Shown here piece after piece: positions 239-18,776 of a stretch of DNA of 64,000 bases. The position numbers and the translations under genes were made by a program. Source of the stretch: Solidesulfovibrio sp. (GTDB lineage Bacteria > Desulfobacterota > Desulfovibrionia > Desulfovibrionales > Desulfovibrionaceae). Position 1 is the first letter of the stretch; each line of letters opens with the position of its first letter. The stretch spans positions 1 to 64,000 of the forward strand of contig NZ_JBCFBA010000006.1 in NCBI RefSeq assembly GCF_038562415.1, in the 5' to 3' direction. The notes under the pieces were generated by a model. It saw only the letters and a list, made by a program, of their open reading frames with translations, made no database searches and had not been told where the DNA came from.

Positions 239-1411
239 TTATCCCGCCAGCGTCCGTTCGTAGACCGCTTCCAAGCGCGCGGCCACGGCGGGCCAGTTGA
301 GTTCCTCGGCGATGAGCCGCAGGGCGTTGTCGTGTTTGCGCCGGCGGCCGTCCGCATCGGTCAGGGCCGTGACGATGGCCTGGCCGAAGGCGGCCGCATC
401 GGCCACGGGCGCGGTGTAGCCGCAGTCGTGGGCTTCCATGATGCGTTTGATTTCCCCAACGGCATTGGACACCACCGGCACGCCCGAGGCGAGGTAGTCG
501 CCGAAGCGGATGGGGAAGCGGGCCTTTTCGATGGGGTCGTCGTCCATGGGCAGAAGCAGCGCGTCGCTGGCGGCGAGATAGGTCGGCACCTCGGTGGACG
601 GCTTTTCGCCGACCTTGACGATGTCCGGGGCGAAGCGCTCCTCGTAGGCGGCCATGCGGGCCTTGAAGTCGTCGGAGATGTGGAGCTTGCCCAGGAAATA
701 GAGCTTGAGGTCCGGGAGGGATTGCCGGGCGTAGGCGTAGGCGTCGAGGAGCGCGAACAGCGATTCGGTGTAGGTGTGGCCCATGGACAGGACCATCTTC
801 GCGTCCGGGGCGAGCCCGATGGCGGCGCGGGCCTGGTCCTTGTCGGGCATGGCCGCGACCAGGGTCGGGCAGTTGGGGATGTAGTGGATTTTTTCCTCGG
901 GCAGGCCGGCGTCGCGGAATTTCCGCATGAGGATGGCGCTGGCCGCCGTGGCCATGTCGGCCACGGCCGGCAACCGGTCCTCGGTGAAGTCGTAGACGGC
1001 GCGCACGGGCCTGGGATGGTGCAGGGTGAAGCCGCCCTTCCACATGTCGTCGTGGTCGAGGACGATTTTCACCTTGGGCCGGGCCAGGGATGTGAGCCAG
1101 GTCGGGAAACTGATGGGATGGAGCGGGAAGGCGAAGGCGTGGAGGATGTCCATCTTTTGGGTCAGGCATTCCCGGGCATTGAGGAACATCCGCAGGGTAT
1201 GGCCGGTGTGGTAGGTGGCCAGGTTGACGCGCGGCAGGAGGCGGATGGTGAGGTTGCCTTCCGTGCGGTCGCGGATGGAAAGCGTCGGTTCGCGCGAGGC
1301 GCAGAGAAGCGTCACCGCATGCCCGCGCGCGGCGATATGCCGGGCGAGGTGGTAGCACCGGAAATAGGTGCCGTAGCCCTCGGGATTGTGATTGAGGTAG
1401 AGGATTTTCAT
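239..1411 (-). CDS. GT4-type glycosyltransferase
   Basis: A 390-residue glycosyltransferase that I place in the GT4/GT-B group. It probably transfers a sugar from a nucleotide donor to a growing surface glycan at the cytoplasmic face of the membrane. The N-terminus starts as a GT-B Rossmann fold (MKILYLNHNPEGYGT). The C-terminal half has the donor-site pattern around ARFPIRFGDYLASGVPVV. I chose the ATG at 1411 because it overlaps the upstream stop by one base (TAATG), a sign of translational coupling. A longer open frame extends further upstream but lies inside the neighbouring gene. It is the last gene of the eight-gene minus-strand glycan operon, and repeat copy 1 follows. Donor and acceptor are unknown. 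Confidence 0.8.
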   Translation of the reverse strand: MKILYLNHNPEGYGTYFRCYHLARHIAARGHAVTLLCASREPTLSIRDRTEGNLTIRLLPRVNLATYHTGHTLRMFLNARECLTQKMDILHAFAFPLHPISFPTWLTSLARPKVKIVLDHDDMWKGGFTLHHPRPVRAVYDFTEDRLPAVADMATAASAILMRKFRDAGLPEEKIHYIPNCPTLVAAMPDKDQARAAIGLAPDAKMVLSMGHTYTESLFALLDAYAYARQSLPDLKLYFLGKLHISDDFKARMAAYEERFAPDIVKVGEKPSTEVPTYLAASDALLLPMDDDPIEKARFPIRFGDYLASGVPVVSNAVGEIKRIMEAHDCGYTAPVADAAAFGQAIVTALTDADGRRRKHDNALRLIAEELNWPAVAARLEAVYERTLAG

Positions 1412-3621
1412 TAGAGATTGGTTCTCACGAAGAGTTTTTCGGGAAGCGCCCGGACCAGGGCCATGATGGGCCGCCAGAACCAGGGGGCGTAGATCGTACC
1501 GCTGGCGCCCGCGGCGATGGCCTGGCGGATGTCGGCGGCCACCCGGGCCGGGGTGACGGTCAAACACTTGGGCGTGGGCGCGGCGGCGGTCATGCGGGTT
1601 CGCGTCCAGCCGGGCAGGACGGTGAGCACGCGCACGCCGGATTTGGCCAGCCGGTGGCGCAGGCCCGCGAGGTAGGCCGTCAGCCCGGCCTTGGCCGCGC
1701 CGTAGAGATAGTTGCTCTTGCGGCCGCGCTCGCCGGCCGGGGAGGACAGGCCGACGATGGTGCCGGCCCCGCGCCCTTCCATGTCCCGGGCGGCGATTTC
1801 GAGGATGGAGGCCGCGCCGGTCAGGTTCACGTCGAGGGCGGCCTTGGCCAGGGCGAAATCGCGCTGCGCCGCCTGCTGCTCGGGATAGAGGCCGAAGGCC
1901 ACGACCACGATGTCCGGGGGCGTCTCCAGGGAATCGTAGAAGGCCTGGTGGCTGTCGAAGGCCGTGGCGTCGAAGGCGCGCACGGCAACGGGCGTGCCGC
2001 AAGCGGCCCGGATGTCGGCGGCGGCCTGTTCCAGGCGGGCCAGGTCGCGGGAGGCCAACGTCAGGCGGGCGGCGTCCTTATGGGCCAGTTCCCTGGCCAG
2101 GGCCAGGGCGATGTCCGAGCCCGCGCCCAGAAGGAGCACGTGGGGCGGCTGGCTGGCGGCGCTTTTCGGCCGCCGGGGCGGCAGGAGCGTATTCTTGAGC
2201 AGGCGCAGGCCGAACCGGGCGTAGTTGGCCACGATTTTGGGGTTGCCGCCGGCTTGCAGGAGCTTGCGGCCGATGTAGGTCGGGCGCAGGTGGAAATCGA
2301 GGAGCGTCTTTTTGCGGAAAGCCTCGATTTCCTCCATGGAAAGTCGGGTGGTGCCGACGGTCGGGGCGTTGAAATAGTCCTTGCCGAGCACCGTGCCGGG
2401 CAAAAGCCCCTCCTCCCGGGCGATTTCGTTGAGGCGCGTGCCGTAATACGGAATGGCGATGTGCAGTTCCAGGAAGTCGTTGTCGAGCTCGAAGATGTGC
2501 TTGCGAGTGGCTTCGAGGTGTTCGCGCCCTTCCCAGGGCAGGCCGACGAGGAAGAAGCCGAAGGTCAAAAGCCCCGCCTCCTTGGCCCATTTCGTGGCTT
2601 GCCGGTTGTCCTCGATGGTGGTGTGCTTGCGGATGCGCGAAAGCGTGTCCGGGCTGCCGGATTCGTAGCCGAAGGCCACCAGCCAGCAGCCGGCCTTTTT
2701 CATGAGAAAAAGCGTGTCGCGGTCCAGGGGCTTGGTCTTGGAGTTGGCCACCCAGCGGATCTTGCCGGCCAGGGGCGAAGCCAGGATGGCCTGGCACACG
2801 GCGGCGGTCCAGTCCCGGTCGAAGGTGAATGTGTCGGACTTGAAGAAGAAATCCCGGATGCCGTGGGTGAAATAGCACTCGGAAAGCTCGGCCAGGATGT
2901 TTTCCGGCGAGCGCAGGCGCAGCTTTTTGCCGGAAATCTTCGGCGTCATGCAGAAGATGCAGGCCGAGGGGCAGCCGCGCGAGGTGGCGATGGTGGCTTG
3001 GGGCTCGCCGGTGTCGGGCCGGGCGTAGAGGGCATTGTTGATGAGGCTTCTGTCCGGGAAGGGCAGGCTGTCCAGGTCGGTTTCCCAGGAGGCGAAATCC
3101 GTGGGCGTCCACACACCGTCCTTGTTGTAGAGGATGCCGCGAATGGACGGCACGGCGGCCGGGTCGCCGAAATGGGCGGCGGCCAGCCTGCCCACGATGA
3201 AATCCGATTCCAGGCCGATCAAATACGTGACGTCGGCCAGGTCGAGCTGTTCGAGGAGCGCCTGGTCCGGGGCGAAAAAGATCGCCCCCTTGAGCATGAC
3301 CAGCAGGCCCGGCTTTTTGGCCGCGAGCTCCCGGACGAGTTTCAGGTCGTCGAAAATCGTGGAATTGGTGATGCTGACGAAGACGCCGTCCGGGTTCTCG
3401 CGGTCGAAATCGGCCAGCAGGTCGGCCGGGGCGGCCCGCTCGGTCTGGTAGTCGCGCAGGAAGACGGCGAAGCCTTCCTTTTTGAGCGTGGCGGCGGCGT
3501 AGCCCAGGTCGTTGGGGGCGCGCATGGAGGTGGCCGTGGACTGCTCCACGTTGCCCTGGGAACGGTCCTCGCCGCGCTGGTAGAAGCGGCCCGGCGGGTA
3601 GAAGAGCATGATCTTTTTCAT
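1411..3621 (-). CDS. Radical SAM-SDR fusion (DprE2-like C-term)
   Basis: A 736-residue fusion. Residues 1 to about 470 form a cobalamin-binding-type plus radical SAM protein with the 4Fe-4S cysteines C217, C221 and C224 (GCPSACIFC). The canonical B12 motif DxHxxG is not seen. Residues 488-736 form a short-chain dehydrogenase with a nucleotide site (GAGSDIA, 499-505) and catalytic Y640/K644 (YGAAK). The SDR half closely follows mycobacterial DprE2, the reductase that makes decaprenyl-phospho-arabinose: an AGERGRKSN region, a VRVLTVLPGWTRTRM region and a similar C-terminal end. The start at 3621 overlaps the upstream UbiA-family stop (ATGA). The junction is in one frame with no stop, so this is a true fusion. 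I infer that the radical SAM half oxidises or epimerises the lipid-linked sugar that the SDR half reduces. The domain calls are firm; the joint reaction is a guess. Confidence 0.8.
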   Translation of the reverse strand: MKKIMLFYPPGRFYQRGEDRSQGNVEQSTATSMRAPNDLGYAAATLKKEGFAVFLRDYQTERAAPADLLADFDRENPDGVFVSITNSTIFDDLKLVRELAAKKPGLLVMLKGAIFFAPDQALLEQLDLADVTYLIGLESDFIVGRLAAAHFGDPAAVPSIRGILYNKDGVWTPTDFASWETDLDSLPFPDRSLINNALYARPDTGEPQATIATSRGCPSACIFCMTPKISGKKLRLRSPENILAELSECYFTHGIRDFFFKSDTFTFDRDWTAAVCQAILASPLAGKIRWVANSKTKPLDRDTLFLMKKAGCWLVAFGYESGSPDTLSRIRKHTTIEDNRQATKWAKEAGLLTFGFFLVGLPWEGREHLEATRKHIFELDNDFLELHIAIPYYGTRLNEIAREEGLLPGTVLGKDYFNAPTVGTTRLSMEEIEAFRKKTLLDFHLRPTYIGRKLLQAGGNPKIVANYARFGLRLLKNTLLPPRRPKSAASQPPHVLLLGAGSDIALALARELAHKDAARLTLASRDLARLEQAAADIRAACGTPVAVRAFDATAFDSHQAFYDSLETPPDIVVVAFGLYPEQQAAQRDFALAKAALDVNLTGAASILEIAARDMEGRGAGTIVGLSSPAGERGRKSNYLYGAAKAGLTAYLAGLRHRLAKSGVRVLTVLPGWTRTRMTAAAPTPKCLTVTPARVAADIRQAIAAGASGTIYAPWFWRPIMALVRALPEKLFVRTNL

Positions 3622-4526
3622 GGATGACCGGAATGCTCCATGTAGAGGATGAGGTAGCAGCTGACGATCCACAGGACGAGTGAGGCCTGAATGAAGCCGT
3701 CGCGCAACAGCACCAGGGTCGGCGAGCCGCTTTTGCACTCGACCAGCGTGATCTGCAAGTAGCGCAGCACGCCCATGATGACGAAAATCGCCGTCAGGTA
3801 CAACTTGTCCGAGCCGTGCTTGGCGATGACCTCGGGCGAAACGGTGTAGAGGATGTAGCTGACGATGACCACGGCGGCCATGATCATCATGGCGGCGGAG
3901 ACGAATTCCAGGTTGTAGCCGTCAAGCGACCGGCGGGTTTTCTCGCAACCGGCGGCGGACAGCAGCAGGTCGTCGCGGCGCTTGGCGAAGCCGAGAAACA
4001 GGGCCAACAGGAAGGTCATCAGCACGATCCAGTGGCTGGGGGTGATGCCCGTGACCACGCCGCCGGCAAACACCCGCAGCACGAAGCCCACGGCGATACA
4101 GCCGAGGTCGATGAGCGCCTTGTGCTTGAGGGAGAAGCTGTAAAGCAGGTTGATGGCGAGATAGGCGGCCAGGATGCCGGCGAAGGGAAGATTGCCCAGG
4201 GTGACGGTGAAAAAAAACGCGCCGAAAAGGAGCAGCCCGGCAAAAAGCAGGCCCTCGGCCGGCGACAGGGCGCCGCTGGCCAGGGGACGGTTGCGCTTGG
4301 CGGGATGGGCCCGGTCCTCTTCCACGTCCCTGAGGTCATTGACGACGTAGACGGCGCTGGCGGTCAGGCAGAAGGCGATGAAGGCCACAATGGCCCGGGC
4401 CAGGGCCTCGGGACCGGCCAGCTTCCAGCCGAAAAAAAGCGGCAGGAAGACAAAGGCGTTTTTCACGTACTGGTGCGGCCTGGCGAGCTTGAGACAAGAG
4501 GCCAGGCGCGACGGGCGATGTTCCAT
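3618..4526 (-). CDS. UbiA-family polyprenyl-P phosphoribosyltransferase
   Basis: A 302-residue integral membrane protein of the UbiA prenyltransferase superfamily. The Mg-binding motif NDLRDVEEDRAH is at residues 63-74 and KRNRPLASG follows at once, the pattern of decaprenyl-phosphate phosphoribosyltransferase (5-phosphoribosyl transfer to polyprenyl phosphate, first step of decaprenyl-phospho-arabinose synthesis) rather than of quinone or heme prenyltransferases. About eight or nine hydrophobic segments are visible. I chose the ATG at 4526, which has GGAG just upstream; the frame stays open 24 codons further but without homologous-looking sequence. It is followed, with a 4-base overlap, by the DprE2-like fusion, which supports a shared pathway. 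A different polyprenyl-linked sugar remains possible. Confidence 0.75.
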   Translation of the reverse strand: MEHRPSRLASCLKLARPHQYVKNAFVFLPLFFGWKLAGPEALARAIVAFIAFCLTASAVYVVNDLRDVEEDRAHPAKRNRPLASGALSPAEGLLFAGLLLFGAFFFTVTLGNLPFAGILAAYLAINLLYSFSLKHKALIDLGCIAVGFVLRVFAGGVVTGITPSHWIVLMTFLLALFLGFAKRRDDLLLSAAGCEKTRRSLDGYNLEFVSAAMMIMAAVVIVSYILYTVSPEVIAKHGSDKLYLTAIFVIMGVLRYLQITLVECKSGSPTLVLLRDGFIQASLVLWIVSCYLILYMEHSGHP

Positions 4527-4594
4527 ACTGCTCCAGCCGGCCGGACGTGATCGCCTGGCGGGCGGCGATACCATAGCCGGGTTGCCCCGGCGCA

Positions 4595-7500
4595 TCAATC
4601 TTCGCCCCGGGCGCCGCCAGGCGCGCGCGGGCCCGGCCAGGGGACAAGCAGGACCAGGCAGGCCAGACTCAGGACAACCCAGGCGCCGTGCACCACGGGC
4701 AGCATCCGGGCCATGATGGCCTGGTCGCGGAAAACGAGTTCGGCCTTGCCCGAGGCGCCGGGCGGCAGGGGGAAGGCGTTGAGGAAGCCGTAGCCCCGAA
4801 CCGGCGCGATCTCGCGATCCATAAGGCGCAGCCGCCAGCCCGGGTGATAGGATTCGGCGAAAACGAGTATTTGCCCGCCGCTGCCCGGGGGCAGATCCAG
4901 GTCGTAGCGGCCCGGGTTGACCCGTTTGTAGCCCAGGGCCGGCGGCGCCCCCGACGCTACCGGACCGGACTCCAGGGCGACACGGTCCAGGGCGACGGTC
5001 GGCGGGCCGGAAAGGGCCAGGCGGGCATGGCCGGCCGCGTCCGTGGCCAGGGGCAGGCCGGTGACGTCCAGGGCACCGTCCCGCTCGAAAACGCGTTTGG
5101 CCCCGCCCGGCAGGGTCACGACATCCCCGGCCCGGCCGACCAGGCGCAGGGAAGCCGCGTAGGCCCCGGGGACCGGCGCCGCCAGGTCGAAGGCGGCCGG
5201 CAGCCGGGCCGCCGCGCCGAAAGACAGGGTCGCCCCGCCCGGCACCGGGGTTTCGGCCACCAGGCGCATGGGGCTGTTGGGGGCGTTGGCCTGGGAGGAC
5301 AGCTGGGCCTGGCGCATGACGAAGCGCACGGTAACCGTGGTAGCCGGACCCGGGATACGGTGGACTTCCTTGCGGCCGTAGACATCCTCCCAGCGGCCGT
5401 CGGGCCGGCCGTCCACCCGGAAAAGCGGCGCAAACGGGCCGCCGTCCACGGACACCGCGGCGTCGACGTACGACGGCGCGGCCTTGTCGCCAAAAAGCCG
5501 GGGATAGGCCTCCAGGGTGACATCCCGGGTCGGCACCGGGAAAGCGGCGGTAAACGAAACGGTGCCCGGCGCGTCGCCTTCCACGGCGACCGTTCCGCCA
5601 CCCGAAACGTCAACATCGCGCAGGACGGCCCCGGCGTTTTCGACGGCAACGCCGGCCTCGCCAGCCAAAAGCGGCACGGTCAGGCGCGGGGCCATGGGCG
5701 AAACCGGCCCGACGACGGCTTCCTCGGCCTCGGCCGCCAGGCGCGCCCCGCCCGAGCCGGCCAAGGCGGCCACCTGTTCCCGGGCCTCGTCGAAAGCCTC
5801 CTCGGGCACGGCCAGCAGGCCCGAAACGGCCACCCCCCGGCCGGGAACGGTCACGGTCAGGCCGTGGGGCGGGCCGGGCTCGAAGGTGGCCGTGCCGCAG
5901 TCGAGCCAGTCCAGGCCCTTGCCCAGGGGGCCGGCGTCGAGGCTGGCGATGGCCGCGCCGTCCAGGGATACGGTGGTGCGGCCGGCGAAGGCGTCGGCCC
6001 CCAGGCGCAGGAAAACCCGCCAGGAACCGTGGCCGATCAGCGGAAATTCCAGGCTGCCCGGCCCCTTGGACACGAGTCCCCCGCCGTCGAGGGCCGCGCC
6101 GCCAAAGCGGATGTCGTCCAGGACCCTGGCGGACAGGGGTTCGAAATCGCCGCTGCGGCCGGCGCCGGCCGCCGCCGCGAAGGCCTCGGCCGGCAGGTAC
6201 GGCAAGACCAGTTCCGGCCAGGACCGGCCCAGGGAGACCAGGCCCGAAAGGCCCTGGCCCAGGCGCTTCAGGTCGGCGGCGGCCAGGTCCGCGCCGCCGA
6301 AGACGGCCTGGCCGGCGAAACCGGGATGGTCGCCGGCGGCCAGCGACAGCAGCAGCGGAAAGCCGCCGGCGGCGAGCGCCCCGCCGGAAACCAGGCGCAG
6401 GCGGGGCAGGGAGTCGGTGTTGGCGTAAACCTCCAGGGGCGGCGCCTGAATGGCGGCATCGGGCCGCAGGTCGGCCTGGGCGGCGACAAAGGGGGCCAGG
6501 ATGTCGCCGGGATCGAAGAGCGTTTCCGGACCGCGCTTGGTGGTCGGCATCCAGCCGAAGGAACCGTAGGACAGATAGGCCACGCTCGGGTCGAACACGA
6601 CCTTTCTTACGGCCATGAGCCCCAGCAGCCGGCCGAAGTCGGCCGTGACCGGCCAGGGCCGCATGAGCACGGACAGCAGGTAGCGGGAGTAGGGTTCGCC
6701 GAAAAAGGTCGGGCCCATGACCGCGTCCTTGCCGAGCATGGCGAAGTTGCGGGTGACGGCGTTTGGCGGCGGGGCCGGCACGTCGCCCGTGGGGCCGGCG
6801 ATGGTCGGCCAGACGGTCAGGCGCCAGTCGCCCGGGTCGACGGCCAGGGCGGCGACCAGCGCCCGTTCGGCCGGGGAAACGGGTTGGGGCATCAGCGCCA
6901 TGGTCTGGGTGGTGGCGTTTTTGGGCACGGCCAGGGAGCCGTTCAGGTACGGCCAGAGGTAGACGGCCAGGCAGGCGGCGGCGAAGGCCCCGGCCGCGAC
7001 ATCCGGCAACCGGCCGCCCCGCCAGAAGGTGCGCCGGGAGACCACGGCCAGGCCCATCCCGGCCAGAAGCGACAGGCCGGTGAAATACAGCGGCAGCCAC
7101 CTGGCCGGCCGGGCCATGAGATAGAAAATCATGGGCACGCGGGCCAGGAGCTTTTCGTAGAAAACCGCCCCGGCCAGGGTTTTCGCCCCGGCCATGCAGC
7201 AAAACCCGGCCAGCAGGCAGGTGGCGGCGTACCATTTGAGCTCGCGGCCCCGGCCCTTGTAGGCCAGGCCCAGCAGGGTCAGGGCCAGCAGGCCGGCGGC
7301 GGCGGCGACCCAGACGGGATTGTCCTTGAAATTGACGGGATAGGCGTATTCCGTGCCCATGCCGTAGTTGTCGGTGTGGCCGAGCATGGCTTGGCGCAGG
7401 GGCGTGGAGAAGCGGCGGTACATGCCGAAATAGTTCTCGCGCACCTCCTCGGCCGTCTGGTGGTATTTGACCGTGGCCCCGCCGCCGGCCATGGACACGG

Positions 7501-8215
7501 CGGCCGGCACGAGCCAGTGCAGGCTCAGGGCAACGACCGTGGCGCCGGCCAGGCAAAAGGCGGCCAGGGGCTTGCCGCTTGGGCGCGAGGCCGTGGCGGC
7601 CAGGGTGAAAAGCACGGTCGTTGCCGCGAAAAAGACGATGCCAAAGGGCGAGGCCGAGCAGACCAGCGCCCCGAGCAGGCCGGCGGCCAGGGCCAGGCCG
7701 GCTGTCCGGCGCCAGCCCGGGGCCGCACCGGCCTTGGCCAGCAGCCAGACGACCCAGGGCAACAAGGCCAGGGCAAAGCCGGTTTCCTGGATGTGGCCGC
7801 TTATGGCCAAAGTGTACTGGCGGGGATTGAAGGCATAGAGCGTCGCGGCCAGGCAGGCCGGCCAGGCGCCCAGGCCCAGCAGGCCGCACAAGGCGGCGAT
7901 GCCGCCGGCGCCGAGGACGGCATAGGCCGGCCCCGTGGCCTTGACCAGCACCGTGCCGCCCAGGGGCGCCAGGGACTCCCGCACCACGATGTCGAACCAG
8001 CGGTTGATGGCCCCGAAGGCCCCGGGCGCGCCGCCGTCGAACAGCGGATTCCAGCCGTATTGGGAAATGGAGGCCAGGCGCCGGTTCTCTTCGGGAAAGG
8101 GCGGCGTGACGTTGTCCCAGTTCTGGTAGATATGGCCCGGGGCGCAGAGAATCCCCCGGTAGGCGACAACGGCCAGGGCGGCCGCCACGGCCAGGACGAC
8201 AAGGTATTTTCGCAT
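4595..8215 (-). CDS. Large GT-C-like membrane glycosyltransferase
   Basis: A 1206-residue membrane protein. Residues 1 to about 430 hold ten or so hydrophobic segments with an early acidic loop (NWDNVTPPFPEEN), as in GT-C enzymes that take sugars from polyprenyl-phosphate donors outside the membrane. About 740 residues of soluble, beta-rich sequence follow, probably carbohydrate-binding and periplasmic, then one last membrane segment near 1170-1195. This layout and the LYAFNPRQYTLAISGH region recall mycobacterial AftD, an arabinofuranosyltransferase. With the UbiA-type and DprE2-like genes directly downstream, a pentofuranosyl transferase is the leading guess, though similarity to AftD is by layout and short patterns only. 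The ATG at 8215 begins a good signal-anchor (MRKYLVVLAV). The gene starts 11 bases after the radical SAM gene. Confidence 0.65.
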   Translation of the reverse strand: MRKYLVVLAVAAALAVVAYRGILCAPGHIYQNWDNVTPPFPEENRRLASISQYGWNPLFDGGAPGAFGAINRWFDIVVRESLAPLGGTVLVKATGPAYAVLGAGGIAALCGLLGLGAWPACLAATLYAFNPRQYTLAISGHIQETGFALALLPWVVWLLAKAGAAPGWRRTAGLALAAGLLGALVCSASPFGIVFFAATTVLFTLAATASRPSGKPLAAFCLAGATVVALSLHWLVPAAVSMAGGGATVKYHQTAEEVRENYFGMYRRFSTPLRQAMLGHTDNYGMGTEYAYPVNFKDNPVWVAAAAGLLALTLLGLAYKGRGRELKWYAATCLLAGFCCMAGAKTLAGAVFYEKLLARVPMIFYLMARPARWLPLYFTGLSLLAGMGLAVVSRRTFWRGGRLPDVAAGAFAAACLAVYLWPYLNGSLAVPKNATTQTMALMPQPVSPAERALVAALAVDPGDWRLTVWPTIAGPTGDVPAPPPNAVTRNFAMLGKDAVMGPTFFGEPYSRYLLSVLMRPWPVTADFGRLLGLMAVRKVVFDPSVAYLSYGSFGWMPTTKRGPETLFDPGDILAPFVAAQADLRPDAAIQAPPLEVYANTDSLPRLRLVSGGALAAGGFPLLLSLAAGDHPGFAGQAVFGGADLAAADLKRLGQGLSGLVSLGRSWPELVLPYLPAEAFAAAAGAGRSGDFEPLSARVLDDIRFGGAALDGGGLVSKGPGSLEFPLIGHGSWRVFLRLGADAFAGRTTVSLDGAAIASLDAGPLGKGLDWLDCGTATFEPGPPHGLTVTVPGRGVAVSGLLAVPEEAFDEAREQVAALAGSGGARLAAEAEEAVVGPVSPMAPRLTVPLLAGEAGVAVENAGAVLRDVDVSGGGTVAVEGDAPGTVSFTAAFPVPTRDVTLEAYPRLFGDKAAPSYVDAAVSVDGGPFAPLFRVDGRPDGRWEDVYGRKEVHRIPGPATTVTVRFVMRQAQLSSQANAPNSPMRLVAETPVPGGATLSFGAAARLPAAFDLAAPVPGAYAASLRLVGRAGDVVTLPGGAKRVFERDGALDVTGLPLATDAAGHARLALSGPPTVALDRVALESGPVASGAPPALGYKRVNPGRYDLDLPPGSGGQILVFAESYHPGWRLRLMDREIAPVRGYGFLNAFPLPPGASGKAELVFRDQAIMARMLPVVHGAWVVLSLACLVLLVPWPGPRAPGGARGED

Positions 8216-8226
8216 GGCGCGCCGGG

Positions 8227-9657
8227 CTAGAGGTAGGCCCGCAGGCGGCGCCAGCCAAGGCGCAACGCCGACAGCCACGGGTTGCCCCCTTCCAGGGGTT
8301 CCATCAGGCGCACGTAACGGTGCAGCGAGGCGGCCAGGCCGAAAAACCGCTCGGCCAAGCCGCCGCCGTGGCGGGCCAGCCAGAAAAGCGGCCGTCGCCA
8401 TCGCGGCAGGCGCACCATCCAGTAGAAGCAGGCGTTAAAGGCCGTCAGGGCCTCGGTGTCGGGCTGGCGCAGCACGGCCTGGTGGAACAGCCCGGCCTGC
8501 ATGGCCTCGCCGGAAGCCAGGCCGCGTTCGACGATATGGTCGAACACCCTTGTGCCGCGGTAGGGCTGCAAAAGCCCCGACCAGGGGTGGTTGGCCGGCC
8601 CCAGGCGCAGGTTGAGGGCCAGGGTCTTTTCGGCCAGGGCCAGGGTCTCGCCGGGCAGGTTGAACATGTTGAAGGTGGAAAAGCGGATGCCGTGGGCGGA
8701 AAGCAGCTCGGCCGTGCGCAGGATCTGCTCCTCGCTGATCTTCTTGCCGAGCACCTCGTTGCGCAACCGCTCGTCGCCGGATTCCAGGCCGAAGGAGACC
8801 ACCTTGCAGCCCGAGGCGGCCAGTTCGCGCACCAATTCGGCGTCGACCAGGTTGGCCCGCACGGCGCAGGTAAACGGCAGGCCGATTTCCGCCCGGTAGC
8901 GGGCCAGAAAGCCTTCCAGCCAGTCGCGGTCCTGGATGAACAGGTCGTCCACGAAGCCGACGTAGCGCACCCCGCCGGGCCGCTCGCGCCGCTCGCGGGC
9001 GATCTCCTCCAGGAGCCTATCGTGGCCGTGGCGGCGCACGTAGCGCCCCTTGCCGGCGTAGAGACGGCGCAGGACGTGGTTGTAGCAAAAGGAGCAGCTA
9101 AACGGGCAGCCCCGGGCGGCCAGGACCTCCACCCCGCCCCCTTCGACCAGTTCGGGGTAGCGGCGGCGGTAGAACCCCCGGTCGGGGAGCGGAAGGCTGT
9201 CCAGGTCGGCGCGCAGCGGATACAGATCGTTCTTGGCCAGCCCCGAGGCGGCCTTGACCCAAAAGCCCGGCACCCGCGCGCCGTCGCCGCCGCCGGCCAG
9301 GGCGTCGACGAACTCCGGCAGGGCGTCCTCGGCCTCGCCCCGGCAGACGGCATCGAGGCCGGGCTCGGCAACGAACTCCGGGAAAAACGTGGCATGGGGG
9401 CCGCCGGCCACGACCGGGCCGTTCCAGACGGCCTTGACCCGCGACGCGGCCTGGGCCGCCCAGCCCTCCAGGCCGGTCATGAGGGAAAAGGCCACGACAT
9501 CGGGCCGCAGGGCCCGGGCCTTGTCGTAAAACGAGGCCTTTTCCTGGGACTCCACCAGCACGTCGGCCCCATGGCCCCGGGCGGCCAGGGCCGCGGCCAG
9601 GTACATGACGCCAAAGGACTCGTAGCCGTCGCGCTGGAGGAACAGGACCTTGGCCAT
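8227..9657 (-). CDS. Cobalamin-dependent-type radical SAM protein
   Basis: A 476-residue radical SAM protein with an N-terminal cobalamin-binding-type Rossmann region (about residues 1-150). The 4Fe-4S cysteines are C184, C188 and C191 in ARGCPFSCSFC, and a glycine-rich SAM site follows. It belongs to the broad family with B12-binding and radical SAM domains that performs methylations and rearrangements on lipids and natural products. Inside a glycan operon it may modify a sugar or lipid carrier. It lies between the 431-residue glycosyltransferase (13-base gap) and the large GT-C-like gene (11-base gap). The specific reaction cannot be read from the sequence. Confidence 0.75.
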   Translation of the reverse strand: MAKVLFLQRDGYESFGVMYLAAALAARGHGADVLVESQEKASFYDKARALRPDVVAFSLMTGLEGWAAQAASRVKAVWNGPVVAGGPHATFFPEFVAEPGLDAVCRGEAEDALPEFVDALAGGGDGARVPGFWVKAASGLAKNDLYPLRADLDSLPLPDRGFYRRRYPELVEGGGVEVLAARGCPFSCSFCYNHVLRRLYAGKGRYVRRHGHDRLLEEIARERRERPGGVRYVGFVDDLFIQDRDWLEGFLARYRAEIGLPFTCAVRANLVDAELVRELAASGCKVVSFGLESGDERLRNEVLGKKISEEQILRTAELLSAHGIRFSTFNMFNLPGETLALAEKTLALNLRLGPANHPWSGLLQPYRGTRVFDHIVERGLASGEAMQAGLFHQAVLRQPDTEALTAFNACFYWMVRLPRWRRPLFWLARHGGGLAERFFGLAASLHRYVRLMEPLEGGNPWLSALRLGWRRLRAYL

Positions 9658-15693: not shown

Positions 15694-17277
15694 CTACTCC
15701 CGGGCGATGCGCTCGCGCAGGACCGTGGAGATCAGATGCACGAGCATCATGTGCACATCCTCGATGAACTGGTCGTTGTCGCTGGGCACGATGAAGCATT
15801 CCTCGACGGCGTCCTTGAGCTTGCCACCGGTAAAGCCCGACATGCCGATGGTGCGGGCCTCGCGTTCCCGGGCCAGACTCAGGGCCTTGAGGACGTTGGC
15901 CGACATGCCGCCGCCGGAGATGCCGATGACCACATCACCGGGATTAAGAAGATTCAACAGCTGTCCGTAAAAGATGTTCTCGAAGCCGGTGTCATTGCCC
16001 CAGGCGGTCATGAGCGGGATGTTGTCGGTCAGCGGCACCACGCGAAAACCCTTCTTGCCCGGGGTCAGCGTGGTCTTGGACAGGTCGGAGCAGAAATGCG
16101 AGGCCGTGGAGGCGCTGCCGCCGTTGCCCATGATGAAAATCTGGCGGTCCTGCTTGCGGGCGTCCCAGATGATGTCGGCGATGCGGCCGATCTGCTCCTT
16201 GTCCAGGCGGCTGACCACGGCCCGCATGCCCAGCAAATAGCCTTCCGGGGTGATGGTGGCGCTGAAGCGGCCGGTGTGGTCCAACGTGAGCTGGGCGCCG
16301 CCGGTCTCGAAGCAAAACGGCAAACGCTCCAGACCCATCTCGGTCATCTCCTCGATGACCGCCTCCTGGTCGTCCACCGGGCAGTAGAGCAGCAGGAAGC
16401 CGCCGCCGCCGGCCCCGGCGATCTTGCCGCCGAGCGCCCCCCTGGCCTTGGCCGCGGCATAGTAGCGGTCGATGGCCGGGTTGCTGATGTTTTTGGCCAG
16501 GCTTTTCTTGAAGTTCCAGCCCTCGTCCAAAAGCCGCCCGAAGCCGTCCAGGTCGCCGGCGGCCAGGGCGTCGCGCATGCGGTAGGCCTGGCCCTTGAGG
16601 CCGTCCAGGGCGGCGATGACGCCAGCGTCGCTCGCCTCGGTGGATTTCTTCTGGCCGGCCAGAATGGAGGCCGAATCGCGCGAGGCCCCGGTGTGAAACA
16701 GCAGCAGCCGGCGCTCCAGGGCGGCGACCAGCCCGGGGTCCAGGGCCAGCGGGGTCACCTCCACGCCGTCCCTGGAGAAGGTCATGAAGTTGAGCCCGCC
16801 ATAGGCGGCCGCGTACTGGTCCTGCATGCCGATGGGGCGCCTGAGCGCCCCGATCTCGATCTCCGAGGCGATGGAGGCCAGGTCGGCCTTGCCCGGGTTC
16901 TCGCCCATGAAGGTGGCCACGGCCTGGACGATGCTGACCGTGACCGTGCCCGAAAGCCCCAGGCCCGAACCGGTGGGCACGTCGCCCTTGAGCGCCATAT
17001 AGACGCCCCCCGTCACGCCGTAGCGCCGCAGCACGGCCTTGGGGATTTTCAGCGCGTCGCCCAGGTTGGCCTTGGCCATGTTGGGGATGCGCTGGTGGAG
17101 CTGGTAGTCCGAGGACACGATCTCCACCGGCCCGTCCTTGGTCGGCTCGATGATGGTGTAGAAGTACTTGTCGATGGTGACGGACAGCACAGCGCCGCCG
17201 TGGCGTTCGTAGTAGGCCGGCAGGTCCGTGCCGCCGCCGCCGAAACTCAAGCGCACCGGCGCCTTGGAAATGATCAT
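15694..17277 (-). CDS. HddA-GmhA fusion (heptokinase-isomerase)
   Basis: A 527-residue bifunctional protein. Residues 1 to about 335 form a GHMP kinase of the D-glycero-alpha-D-manno-heptose 7-phosphate kinase type: substrate loop APVRLSFGGGGTDLP, ATP motif PTGSGLGLSG (101-110), and KIAGAGGGGF (285-294). Residues about 350-527 form a SIS domain of the sedoheptulose-7-phosphate isomerase (GmhA) type with GNGGSASTASHF (384-395). Together they would supply the first two steps from sedoheptulose 7-phosphate to heptose 1,7-bisphosphate. The domain order puts the second-step kinase first. The start overlaps the GNAT stop (ATGA). The nucleotidyltransferase for the last step is in the same operon. 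The phosphatase GmhB is not seen. Confidence 0.85.
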   Translation of the reverse strand: MIISKAPVRLSFGGGGTDLPAYYERHGGAVLSVTIDKYFYTIIEPTKDGPVEIVSSDYQLHQRIPNMAKANLGDALKIPKAVLRRYGVTGGVYMALKGDVPTGSGLGLSGTVTVSIVQAVATFMGENPGKADLASIASEIEIGALRRPIGMQDQYAAAYGGLNFMTFSRDGVEVTPLALDPGLVAALERRLLLFHTGASRDSASILAGQKKSTEASDAGVIAALDGLKGQAYRMRDALAAGDLDGFGRLLDEGWNFKKSLAKNISNPAIDRYYAAAKARGALGGKIAGAGGGGFLLLYCPVDDQEAVIEEMTEMGLERLPFCFETGGAQLTLDHTGRFSATITPEGYLLGMRAVVSRLDKEQIGRIADIIWDARKQDRQIFIMGNGGSASTASHFCSDLSKTTLTPGKKGFRVVPLTDNIPLMTAWGNDTGFENIFYGQLLNLLNPGDVVIGISGGGMSANVLKALSLAREREARTIGMSGFTGGKLKDAVEECFIVPSDNDQFIEDVHMMLVHLISTVLRERIARE

Positions 17278-17990
17278 GCGTCCCTCTTTTGCATGGGGTC
17301 CCCGGGCCCGGCGTAGTGAAAGCGGGAGAAATACGCCTCGGGAACGAATCCGTTTTTCACGTACATCCGGCAGGCCGGCTGGTTTTCGATCTCGGTGACC
17401 ACGGTCAGCCGCGCGCAGCCCGCCCGGGCGGCGGCGCGCAGCACCCGGCCCATGAGCGCCGACCCCAGGCCCCGGCGATGCTCCAGCACCGAAACCAGGT
17501 CCACGGCCGCCTCGCCGCCGGCCAGCTTGAAACTCACGAAGCTCGCCCCGGCATAGACCTTGCGGATGGCCGGGGAGGCCAGCGTGTTGCCGATCCAGGC
17601 CGCCTGGAAGCGGTCGCGGCCGGCTTTCGGGGCAAAGGCGTCCAGGCCGAAACGGTCGTAGCGAAAATTGGCCACGTGCCGGGCGATGTCCCCGGGCGCG
17701 AGCCTGTTTTCCGTCGTGTCCAGCGGGTCCGGGCCGTCGGCCAGGCCGGGGTCCACGGGGGAGGCGTAGCGCACCTGCACCGTGACCTTGCGAAAGCCCT
17801 GGGCCTGGAAAAACCGGTCGGCCGCAAGGTCCTCGGCCGCGATGCGGGCATCGGCCATGACGCGCGCCATGGTCCGCAGGCGCGGCAACTCCTCGGCCAG
17901 CACGGCATAGTCATAGGCCGTCACCCGGTAGAAATCGCAGCCAAAGGCCCGCGAATCGAAGTCCTGGCGCGCCAGGCAGGTAAAATTCAT
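17274..17990 (-). CDS. GNAT-family N-acetyltransferase
   Basis: A 238-residue GNAT acetyltransferase. The C-terminal domain has the acetyl-CoA loop HRRGLGSALMGRVL (RxxGxG/A) followed by TVVTEIENQPACRMYVKNGF, typical of sugar-amine acetyltransferases such as WecD/FdtC-like enzymes. The N-terminal part (LARQDFDSRAFGCDFYRV) matches the accessory half of that group. It is sandwiched between hddC and hddA-gmhA with 4-base overlaps on both sides, so it is made with the heptose enzymes, although the standard heptose pathway has no acetyltransferase step. It may acetylate an amino sugar attached to the same glycan. Confidence 0.75.
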   Translation of the reverse strand: MNFTCLARQDFDSRAFGCDFYRVTAYDYAVLAEELPRLRTMARVMADARIAAEDLAADRFFQAQGFRKVTVQVRYASPVDPGLADGPDPLDTTENRLAPGDIARHVANFRYDRFGLDAFAPKAGRDRFQAAWIGNTLASPAIRKVYAGASFVSFKLAGGEAAVDLVSVLEHRRGLGSALMGRVLRAAARAGCARLTVVTEIENQPACRMYVKNGFVPEAYFSRFHYAGPGDPMQKRDA

Positions 17991-18718
17991 GGCTGCCCGC
18001 CACCCCACCGCTTCCCGCCGCCGGCCACGTGGGCATTGGCCGTTTCCAGCTTTTGCGGAGAACCGATGTCCATAACATAGCCGTCCAGCACCTGGCCGTA
18101 AAGCGGTTCCCCGGCGGCGAGCAGGGCCGGAAAGACATCGTGGCCGAAGTCGCAAAAGCCGTTTTCCGGAATGTAGTCGAGGACTTTGGGCGACAGGGCG
18201 TAGACGCCGGCATTGGCCAGATCGGTGAAGGCCACGGGCGGCTTTTCCACGAAGCGGGTGATGCGGCCGGTGGGATCGCGGTCCACCAGGCCGCATTCCG
18301 TGGGGTTGTCCACCCGGTAGAGCCCCACCGTGGCCACGGCGCCGCTGGCCTCGTGGGCGGCGGCAAAGGCGCGCAAGTCCACGTCGAGGTAGACGTCGCC
18401 GTAGAGGACCAGAAAAGGGGCGTCAAAAAAGTCGCGGAAGTTGTTGACCGCCCCGGCCGTGCCGTAAAGCTCGGGCTCCAGGCCGTAGAGCAGGCGCGCG
18501 CCGAAGGCCCCGCCGTTGCCGAAATGGTCCATGACCACATGAGGCAGGTGATGGAGGTTTACGGCCACGTCGGCGATGCCGGCCGCGACGCACAGGCGCA
18601 CCAGATGCTCCAGCACCGGCCGGCCGGCCACGGGCACCATGGGCTTGGGCATGGCGTCGGTGAGCGGCCGCAGCCGCGTGCCGAGCCCGGCTGAAAGAAT
18701 GAGCGCTTTAGTGATCAA
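17987..18718 (-). CDS. hddC: Heptose-1-phosphate nucleotidyltransferase
   Basis: A 243-residue sugar-phosphate nucleotidyltransferase. The signature LSAGLGTRLRPLTDAMPKPM is at residues 8-27, and YGDVYLDVDL holds the metal-binding aspartates. Within this operon the best reading is HddC, which makes GDP-heptose from heptose 1-phosphate; a glucose or mannose nucleotidyltransferase is possible on sequence alone. The start is probably a TTG at 18718 (MITKALILSAG), because GGAGG lies nine bases upstream. That Shine-Dalgarno is supplied by the tail of intergenic repeat copy 3. An ATG inside the repeat (18748) would add ten residues of repeat-encoded sequence and is unlikely. Confidence 0.75.
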   Translation of the reverse strand: MITKALILSAGLGTRLRPLTDAMPKPMVPVAGRPVLEHLVRLCVAAGIADVAVNLHHLPHVVMDHFGNGGAFGARLLYGLEPELYGTAGAVNNFRDFFDAPFLVLYGDVYLDVDLRAFAAAHEASGAVATVGLYRVDNPTECGLVDRDPTGRITRFVEKPPVAFTDLANAGVYALSPKVLDYIPENGFCDFGHDVFPALLAAGEPLYGQVLDGYVMDIGSPQKLETANAHVAGGGKRWGGGQP

Positions 18719-18723
18719 AGGAA

Positions 18724-18776
18724 GATGCCTCCGGCGGCCGGGGGGCATGATGCCCCCCGGACCCCCTCGCAGGGGT
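18724..18776 (-). repeat. Intergenic repeat copy 3 (before hddC)
   Basis: This copy reads on the minus strand with hairpin I (GGGGGGCATCATGCCCCCC) followed by the tail CCGCCGGAGGCATCTT. It is the only copy placed in front of a gene start. The tail GGAGG is the likely ribosome-binding site of hddC. It faces copy 4 as an inverted pair 50 bases apart. Confidence 0.75.

What the first reader, a model, noticed from the sequence alone, without database searches (positions are those of the whole stretch)
1411..8215. Possible anaerobic polyprenyl-phospho-arabinose-like pathway
Seen: a UbiA-family gene with the phosphoribosyltransferase-type motif, a DprE2-like SDR, and a large GT-C-like protein with an AftD-like layout are adjacent, with overlapping or close ends. 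Known: in mycobacteria, DPPR synthase, DprE1 and DprE2 make decaprenyl-phospho-arabinose, the donor for Aft enzymes. No DprE1 is seen; a radical SAM module sits in its place. Inference: a donor pathway in which an oxygen-independent enzyme replaces the FAD oxidase DprE1.
Basis: partly seen in the sequence, partly recalled or inferred. Interest (0 to 1): 0.82.

Follow-up and report, generated by a model that had tools for sequence, protein, structure and literature searches.

The report
Radical enzyme in DprE1's place
In some sulfate-reducing bacteria, the place in an operon where DprE1 usually sits (a flavin enzyme that helps turn lipid-linked ribose into arabinose) is taken by an unrelated radical enzyme fused to the next enzyme of the pathway, which suggests a different chemistry for making a cell-surface sugar.

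Summary
The UbiA protein is a polyprenyl-phosphate phosphoribosyltransferase (249.5 bits, cut-off 234). The DprE2-like SDR is not a separate gene: it is the C-terminal half of one 736-aa ORF whose N-terminal half is a B12-binding-type radical SAM (rSAM) protein. The large GT-C-like protein matches no Aft family; that part is unproven. No DprE1 was found in the genome.

Among 247 genomes of the class, the full-length rSAM-SDR fusion was found in 12 and DprE1 in 14, with no overlap; 12 of 12 and 13 of 14 also carry the UbiA synthase. In 14 of 14 DprE1 loci, DprE1 sits directly next to the DprE2-like SDR. In the window's genus the rSAM holds that place. A clade of the same rSAM in Lachnospiraceae tracks UbiA (11 of 11 genomes with it; 2 of 20 without) but lacks a DprE2-like SDR (3 of 3 searched).

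Best reading: a radical SAM route that remodels polyprenyl-phospho-ribose, most likely by 2'-oxidation and then reduction to arabinose. AprD4-like deoxygenation and direct radical epimerisation are not excluded. Oxygen avoidance is not shown: DprE1 also occurs in this class, including the same genus.

The parts
1411..3621 (-). single ORF, 736 aa: B12-binding-like + radical SAM domains (aa 1-~486) fused in frame to a DprE2-like SDR (aa ~490-736)
   Evidence: AlphaFold model pLDDT 87.6, pTM 0.62; Foldseek top hit AprD4 6fd2
2158..3621 (-). radical SAM module; cluster Cys 217, 221, 224; further invariant Cys 249, 276, 312; no DxHxxG motif
1414..2157 (-). SDR module, DprE2-like; Asn599-Ser627-Tyr640-Lys644 present in 15 of 15 aligned fusions
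3618..4526 (-). UbiA-family polyprenyl-phosphate phosphoribosyltransferase (start could be as far out as 4598); stop overlaps the fusion start (ATGA)
4595..8215 (-). large GT-C-like protein, 1206 aa, family unassigned; presumed glycosyltransferase by position only
239..1411 (-). GT4-family glycosyltransferase, 390 aa, start overlaps the fusion stop
   Evidence: a homologue lies next to the fusion in L040-L050

Best explanation
The ORF at 1411-3621 replaces the DprE1/DprE2 pair of a polyprenyl-phospho-pentose pathway. [quoted passage not shown] (2) A phosphatase removes the 5'-phosphate (not found in the locus; inferred). (3) The rSAM domain makes a 5'-deoxyadenosyl radical and takes a hydrogen from a ring carbon of polyprenyl-phospho-ribose, most likely C2'; the resulting alpha-hydroxyalkyl radical loses an electron and a proton, as DesII does with TDP-quinovose, giving the 2'-ketone without FAD, quinone or oxygen (inferred). 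(4) The fused SDR reduces the ketone from the other face with NAD(P)H, giving polyprenyl-phospho-arabinofuranose (inferred from DprE2 likeness and an intact catalytic tetrad). (5) Membrane glycosyltransferases use it for a surface glycan (inferred from position). Shown here: the genes, the fusion, the shared operon place, the mutual exclusion and the co-occurrence with UbiA.
For: Family matches. In 12 of 12 DprE1 loci with UbiA on the same stretch, DprE1 lies between UbiA and the SDR, and in 14 of 14 DprE1 loci it is directly next to the SDR; in the window's genus the rSAM holds that place. Fusion 12 and DprE1 14 of 247 genomes, overlap 0; UbiA synthase in 12 of 12 and 13 of 14. Fusion UbiAs and fusion SDRs each form one clade (95/92 and 95/98), drawn among sequences of DprE1 operons. 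SDR tetrad intact in 15 of 15 fusions. DesII dehydrogenates a vicinal-diol sugar, by computed proton-coupled electron transfer to its [4Fe-4S] cluster (passages of PMC11434129). DprE1 makes the 2-keto intermediate that DprE2 reduces (passages of PMC10307805).
Against: The closest structure is AprD4, a 1,2-diol dehydratase with its own reductase partner, which would make a deoxysugar instead. Lachnospiraceae with the same rSAM clade have no DprE2-like SDR (3 of 3 searched), so the rSAM may not need one. The SDR half evolves faster than DprE2 of DprE1 operons (dN/dS within a genus about 0.15-0.52 against 0.10-0.14), though UbiA is also faster in the fusion genomes, so part of this is general. 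Genus g19 fusions have an 8-residue gap before the conserved Asn. Nothing tells which hydrogen is taken. No sugar analysis exists here. The exclusion test is not corrected for phylogeny: in the 247 genomes the fusion lies in two genera.
Confidence: 0.45

Rival explanations
1. AprD4-like deoxygenation: the rSAM domain removes a hydroxyl from the ribose (radical 1,2-diol dehydration), leaving a keto-deoxypentose, and the fused SDR reduces the ketone, so the donor is a polyprenyl-phospho-deoxypentose (for example a 3-deoxy-arabinose or a 2-deoxyribose).
For: Foldseek top hit of the rSAM module is AprD4 6fd2 (TM 0.80 by target length); phmmer E 7.4e-30; NCBIfam AprD4 117 bits. AprD4 works with an NADPH-dependent reductase partner, AprD3 (passages of PMC5461906), as this domain does with an SDR. 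All six Cys of the rSAM half have a Cys partner in AprD4 in the printed alignment.
Against: AprD4 score is far under the equivalog cut-off of 500. Gene context is that of DprE1/DprE2 epimerisation, and the SDR is drawn among DprE2s of DprE1 operons. Lachnospiraceae keep the rSAM without a DprE2-like SDR (3 of 3 searched).
Confidence: 0.22
2. The rSAM domain alone is a radical epimerase: it takes the C2' hydrogen and a hydrogen returns from the other face. The SDR is a left-over of the old operon, kept for repair of keto by-product or for regulation.
For: In Lachnospiraceae the same rSAM clade (49-52% identical; 48 residues invariant in 26 of 26 family rows and absent from 5 other rSAM proteins) goes with UbiA in 11 of 11 genomes, against 2 of 20 without it, with a HAD phosphatase beside UbiA or the rSAM in several loci, and no DprE2-like SDR in 3 of 3 genomes searched. 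Faster evolution of the SDR half.
Against: The three invariant non-cluster Cys lie in helices 239-253 and 269-280 and at the start of strand 312-320 of the predicted structure, not where SAM binds in such barrels (recalled), so no obvious Cys hydrogen donor is seen. The SDR tetrad is intact in 15 of 15 fusions and dN stays under dS in every fusion pair. Unrelated reductases in Lachnospiraceae were not excluded.
Confidence: 0.2
3. Another radical reaction on the lipid-linked pentose or on the glycan (cobalamin-dependent methylation, or HpnJ-like ring rearrangement), with the SDR doing a separate step.
For: B12-binding Pfam match just over cut-off (33 against 32.1); highest rSAM family score is HpnJ (163.9 bits; 211 bits for the L119 relative), an enzyme that acts on a lipid-linked sugar (passages of PMC12583986).
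Against: HpnJ score is far under its cut-off of 577.6; no DxHxxG motif; no hopanoid gene noticed by eye among the neighbours listed; does not explain why it stands in DprE1's place.
Confidence: 0.1

Closest known systems
Mycobacterial DprE1/DprE2 decaprenylphosphoryl-ribose 2'-epimerase with DPPR synthase
   Same: DPPR-synthase-type UbiA and a DprE2-like SDR in one operon; order UbiA, oxidising step, SDR as in the DprE1 operons of the same class
   Different: No FAD oxidase DprE1; a radical SAM module stands in its place and is fused to the SDR; the large membrane protein matches no Aft family
Three-component pentofuranose systems (Kelly et al. 2024, PMC11127046; abstract, outline and passages seen)
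   Same: Polyprenyl phosphoribose synthase, presumed GT-C, and an auxiliary enzyme that changes the pentose; HAD phosphatase present in Lachnospiraceae loci
   Different: Auxiliary enzymes named there are an SDR (ORF13) for xylofuranose and DprE1/E2 for arabinofuranose; the terms 'radical' and 'anaerob' have 0 occurrences in that paper's main text
AprD4/AprD3 radical SAM diol dehydratase and reductase (apramycin)
   Same: Closest solved fold of the rSAM module; radical SAM enzyme paired with an NADPH-dependent reductase acting on a sugar
   Different: Separate proteins and an aminoglycoside substrate; sequence score under the AprD4 cut-off
HpnJ (hopanoid cyclitol ether formation)
   Same: Best-scoring named rSAM family; acts on a lipid-linked sugar
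   Different: Score far under cut-off; no hopanoid gene noticed nearby

Membership tests
DprE1/DprE2 epimerase system | FAD-dependent DprE1 oxidase | tested here: not met
   No NF053785 match in the own genome at E 1e-30 (6 of 11 candidates scored); no PF04030 over cut-off; 10 FAD_binding_4 matches exist, of which the 8 fetched were looked at by eye and none was taken for DprE1
DprE1/DprE2 epimerase system | DprE2-type SDR reductase | tested here: inconclusive
   197.8 bits against NF053786, cut-off 250; over cut-off for PRK07102; closest solved protein DprE2
DprE1/DprE2 epimerase system | Polyprenyl-phosphate phosphoribosyltransferase | tested here: met
   249.5 bits, cut-off 234
DprE1/DprE2 epimerase system | Product polyprenyl-phospho-arabinofuranose | not testable with these tools
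   needs biochemistry
AprD4 radical SAM diol dehydratase | NCBIfam NF033070 over cut-off | tested here: not met
   117 bits, cut-off 500
AprD4 radical SAM diol dehydratase | Same fold over the module | tested here: met
   Foldseek 6fd2 chain A, TM 0.80 by target length, 23% identity, 478 alignment columns
HpnJ | TIGR03471 over cut-off | tested here: not met
   163.9 bits, cut-off 577.6
Radical SAM superfamily | PF04055 domain with CxxxCxxC | tested here: met
   70.1 bits, cut-off 29.5; Cys 217, 221, 224 invariant in 26 of 26
Cobalamin-dependent radical SAM enzymes | Bound cobalamin | not testable with these tools
   B12-binding domain barely over cut-off; no DxHxxG
Three-component pentofuranose system | HAD-type phosphoribose phosphatase | tested here: inconclusive
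   Not noticed beside the window locus (by eye); a HAD-family protein beside UbiA or rSAM in Lachnospiraceae loci (one scanned)
Three-component pentofuranose system | GT-C glycosyltransferase | tested here: inconclusive
   Large GT-C-like protein without family match over cut-off; model unusable
AftD arabinofuranosyltransferase | Match to an Aft family or solved AftD | tested here: not met
   No such match listed in Pfam, NCBIfam or PDB searches; that these libraries hold Aft entries was not checked

The most novel reading that the evidence does not exclude
A distinct clade of radical SAM enzymes, found here in Desulfovibrionaceae, one Magnetococcales genome and Lachnospiraceae, acts on polyprenyl-phospho-ribose and is a new way to diversify lipid-linked pentofuranose donors, either as a one-enzyme radical epimerase or as a deoxygenase making a lipid-linked deoxypentose donor.
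Probability: 0.4. Interest if true: 0.88.

Novelty: new variant of a known kind. Interest (0 to 1): 0.72.

Why it matters
DprE1 is a much-studied tuberculosis drug target, and the route to polyprenyl-phospho-arabinose described in the passages read here goes through it. A radical SAM enzyme in the same operon place would be a second chemistry for the step, and a radical SAM reaction on a lipid-linked furanose. It also gives a marker gene for pentofuranose glycans in anaerobic Lachnospiraceae and sulfate reducers, and the fork between oxidation, deoxygenation and epimerisation can be settled with one purified protein.

Tried and rejected
Rejected: DprE1 elsewhere in the genome; the L039 FAD_binding_4 protein looks like a berberine-bridge-type oxidase, judged by eye. 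Rejected: quinone-type UbiA (scores). Rejected as proven: AftD identity of the large protein. Held unlikely: a Cys-donor epimerase, since the extra invariant Cys are not at the SAM end of the barrel by predicted secondary structure; coordinates were not at hand to measure this.

Paper searches: radical SAM + DprE1 + polyprenyl, and DprE1 + anaerobic + radical SAM, 0 papers each; decaprenylphosphoryl + arabinose + Desulfovibrio, 0; (3 of 5 terms) listed 20 of 23 papers, none of the 20 with both radical SAM and arabinofuranose or pentofuranose. The library holds only open-licence papers. Wider searches for the rSAM: 1 of 48 genomes of the Magnetococcales genome's class and 1 of 358 of the Lachnospiraceae genome's phylum, each the query's own genome; in the own phylum (395 genomes, E 1e-45) only relatives of 28-35% identity besides the own hit; that draw need not hold the fusion genomes.

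Limits: one search scored 4 first-look candidates per genome and up to 6, so misses are possible. DprE1 matches are all under the NF053785 cut-off (0 of 247 over it), and the G184 match has a stop codon inside. The exclusion p of 0.0015 and the Lachnospiraceae p of 9e-7 treat genomes as independent. DprE1 was not searched genome-wide in the Lachnospiraceae or Magnetococcales genomes; the DprE2-like SDR was searched in 3 of 11 Lachnospiraceae genomes. The 20 genomes without rSAM are the 20 unmatched ones shown, of 290 unmatched. Trees are midpoint-rooted; the forks that place the fusion SDRs among DprE1-linked ones are 91/92 and 84/87, not starred. NG86 dS in GC-rich genomes is rough.
Full report
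WHAT IS THERE. The window's first 8.2 kb carry, on the minus strand, a large membrane protein (4595-8215), a UbiA protein (3618-4526), one 736-aa ORF (1411-3621) and a GT4 glycosyltransferase (239-1411), with touching or overlapping ends. Pfam finds B12-binding (33 bits, cut-off 32.1), Radical_SAM (70.1) and adh_short (99.3) in it. The window starts at the end of its contig (G000:C6:1-64000), so what lies beyond the GT4 gene is known only from relatives. Records found by one genome-contig scan name the nearest relatives as Solidesulfovibrio.

FAMILIES. UbiA is over the cut-off of a decaprenyl-phosphate phosphoribosyltransferase model (249.5 against 234) and matches solved DPPR synthase. The SDR is closest to DprE2 among solved proteins and over the cut-off of PRK07102, but under that of the DprE2 equivalog. 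The rSAM half scores best against HpnJ (163.9 bits) and then AprD4 (117), both far under cut-off. The large protein has no match over any cut-off, and its model failed.

SAME PLACE AS DprE1. In 247 genomes of the class, the full-length fusion was found in 12: 8 of the 10 listed genomes of the window's genus (g1) and 4 of a second genus (g19). DprE1 (NF053785, E 1e-30) was found in 14, none over the model's cut-off of 500. None has both. The UbiA synthase (NF008977, E 1e-20) is in 37, among them 12 of 12 fusion genomes and 13 of 14 DprE1 genomes; 12 genomes have it with neither. Stretches were fetched for all 14 DprE1 genomes. DprE1 is directly next to the DprE2-like SDR in 14 of 14, and between UbiA and the SDR in the 12 where UbiA lies on the same stretch; in some of these other genes also lie between UbiA and DprE1. 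Six of these DprE1 proteins were scanned and all best match NF053785 (345-421 bits); one was compared with the PDB and best matches solved DprE1 (E 5e-76). In the window genus the rSAM takes that place, with UbiA directly before it; in the four g19 genomes UbiA is about 0.1, 4, 8 and 29 kb away. Two further genomes (G110, G213) have a DprE2-like SDR without DprE1.

TREES. Fusion UbiAs form one clade (95/92), drawn among UbiAs of DprE1 operons and of genomes with neither; fusion SDRs form one clade (95/98), drawn among SDRs of DprE1 operons with moderate support (91/92, 84/87). This fits loss of DprE1 and gain of the rSAM in an existing operon. The rSAM sequences of 15 fusions, one Magnetococcales and ten Lachnospiraceae form one clade (100/99) far from five other rSAM proteins.

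WITHOUT DprE2. The genome-contig scan gave 12 loci: 7 Desulfovibrionaceae, 1 Magnetococcales (60% identity, rSAM a separate gene, beside UbiA and a DprE2-like SDR on the other strand), 3 Lachnospiraceae (51-52%) and 1 weak Anaerolineae hit of 25%. An SDR profile search of 5 of these genomes found a DprE2-like SDR in the Magnetococcales and the Desulfovibrionaceae genome (305 and 348 bits) but only weaker SDRs (best 77-90 bits) in the 3 Lachnospiraceae. In 299 genomes of the L119 genome's family the rSAM is in 9 (E 1e-70). UbiA (PF01040) is in 11 of 11 genomes with the rSAM (these 9 and two), and in 2 of 20 without it. In 6 of the 11 it is within about 1 kb of the rSAM, and a HAD-family protein is part of several of these groups. 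Two of these UbiAs were scanned: closest to the phosphoribosyltransferase models but far under cut-off (84-89 bits). So the rSAM goes with the UbiA step, and may not always need the SDR.

MECHANISM. The fusion model is good (pLDDT 87.6, pTM 0.62); its best PDB match is AprD4 with its substrate. AprD4 is described as a radical SAM diol dehydratase with an NADPH-dependent reductase partner (passages of PMC5461906). DesII shows that such a sugar radical can instead be oxidised to a ketone, by computation through its own [4Fe-4S] cluster (passages of PMC11434129). No Cys set for an auxiliary cluster is seen: the rSAM half has six Cys, three of them in the cluster motif, and all six have a Cys partner in AprD4. 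SDR catalytic residues are intact in 15 of 15 fusions. The SDR half shows dN/dS of about 0.15-0.52 within a genus, against 0.10-0.14 for the SDR of five DprE1 operons; UbiA is also faster in the fusion genomes, so the excess is modest; the rSAM half has the lowest dN of the three in every fusion pair. I commit to oxidation at C2' and reduction to arabinose, at 0.45, because the SDR looks like DprE2 of a DprE1 operon; deoxygenation (0.22) and direct epimerisation (0.20) remain open. A need to avoid oxygen is not supported: DprE1 occurs in the same class and in one genome of the same genus (G044).

KNOWN OR NEW. Three-component pentofuranose systems are described, with DprE1/E2 or an SDR as auxiliary enzymes (PMC11127046; abstract, outline and passages seen). 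No paper holding both DprE1 and radical SAM with the third term asked was found in the open-licence library. I rate it a new variant of a known kind of pathway, with a possibly new enzyme reaction.

Noticed in passing
window 8227-9657 (-): A second B12-binding radical SAM gene between the large membrane protein and a GT4 gene. In L111 the slot holds a different gene that looks like a radical SAM protein by eye (4376-5410) and in L040 none was called: a variable slot in a surface-glycan locus.
   Followed up: partly
L090, L091, L094: UbiA phosphoribosyltransferase genes without DprE1 or the rSAM, near a HAD-type phosphatase and a small SMR-like membrane protein, both named by eye: perhaps ribofuranose-only systems.
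   Followed up: partly
L059 9372-10097, L062 7603-8319: DprE2-like SDRs standing alone, with no DprE1 found in the genome and no UbiA match beside them.
   Followed up: no
L111 18010-19389 and L040 3-977: A MATE-type membrane protein, named by eye, some kilobases from the fusion; a MATE protein is the proposed flippase of the Citrobacter three-component system.
   Followed up: no
window 15697-18748 (-): A GHMP-kinase-like gene and a nucleotidyltransferase-like gene, named by eye, next to the glycan locus: perhaps an activated heptose.
   Followed up: no
L159 6740-8551: A DUF6044 protein (443.6 bits) directly beside a Lachnospiraceae rSAM: a candidate glycosyltransferase using its product.
   Followed up: partly
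L047, L048, L050 SDR half: An 8-residue gap before the conserved Asn in the SDR of the second genus.
   Followed up: no
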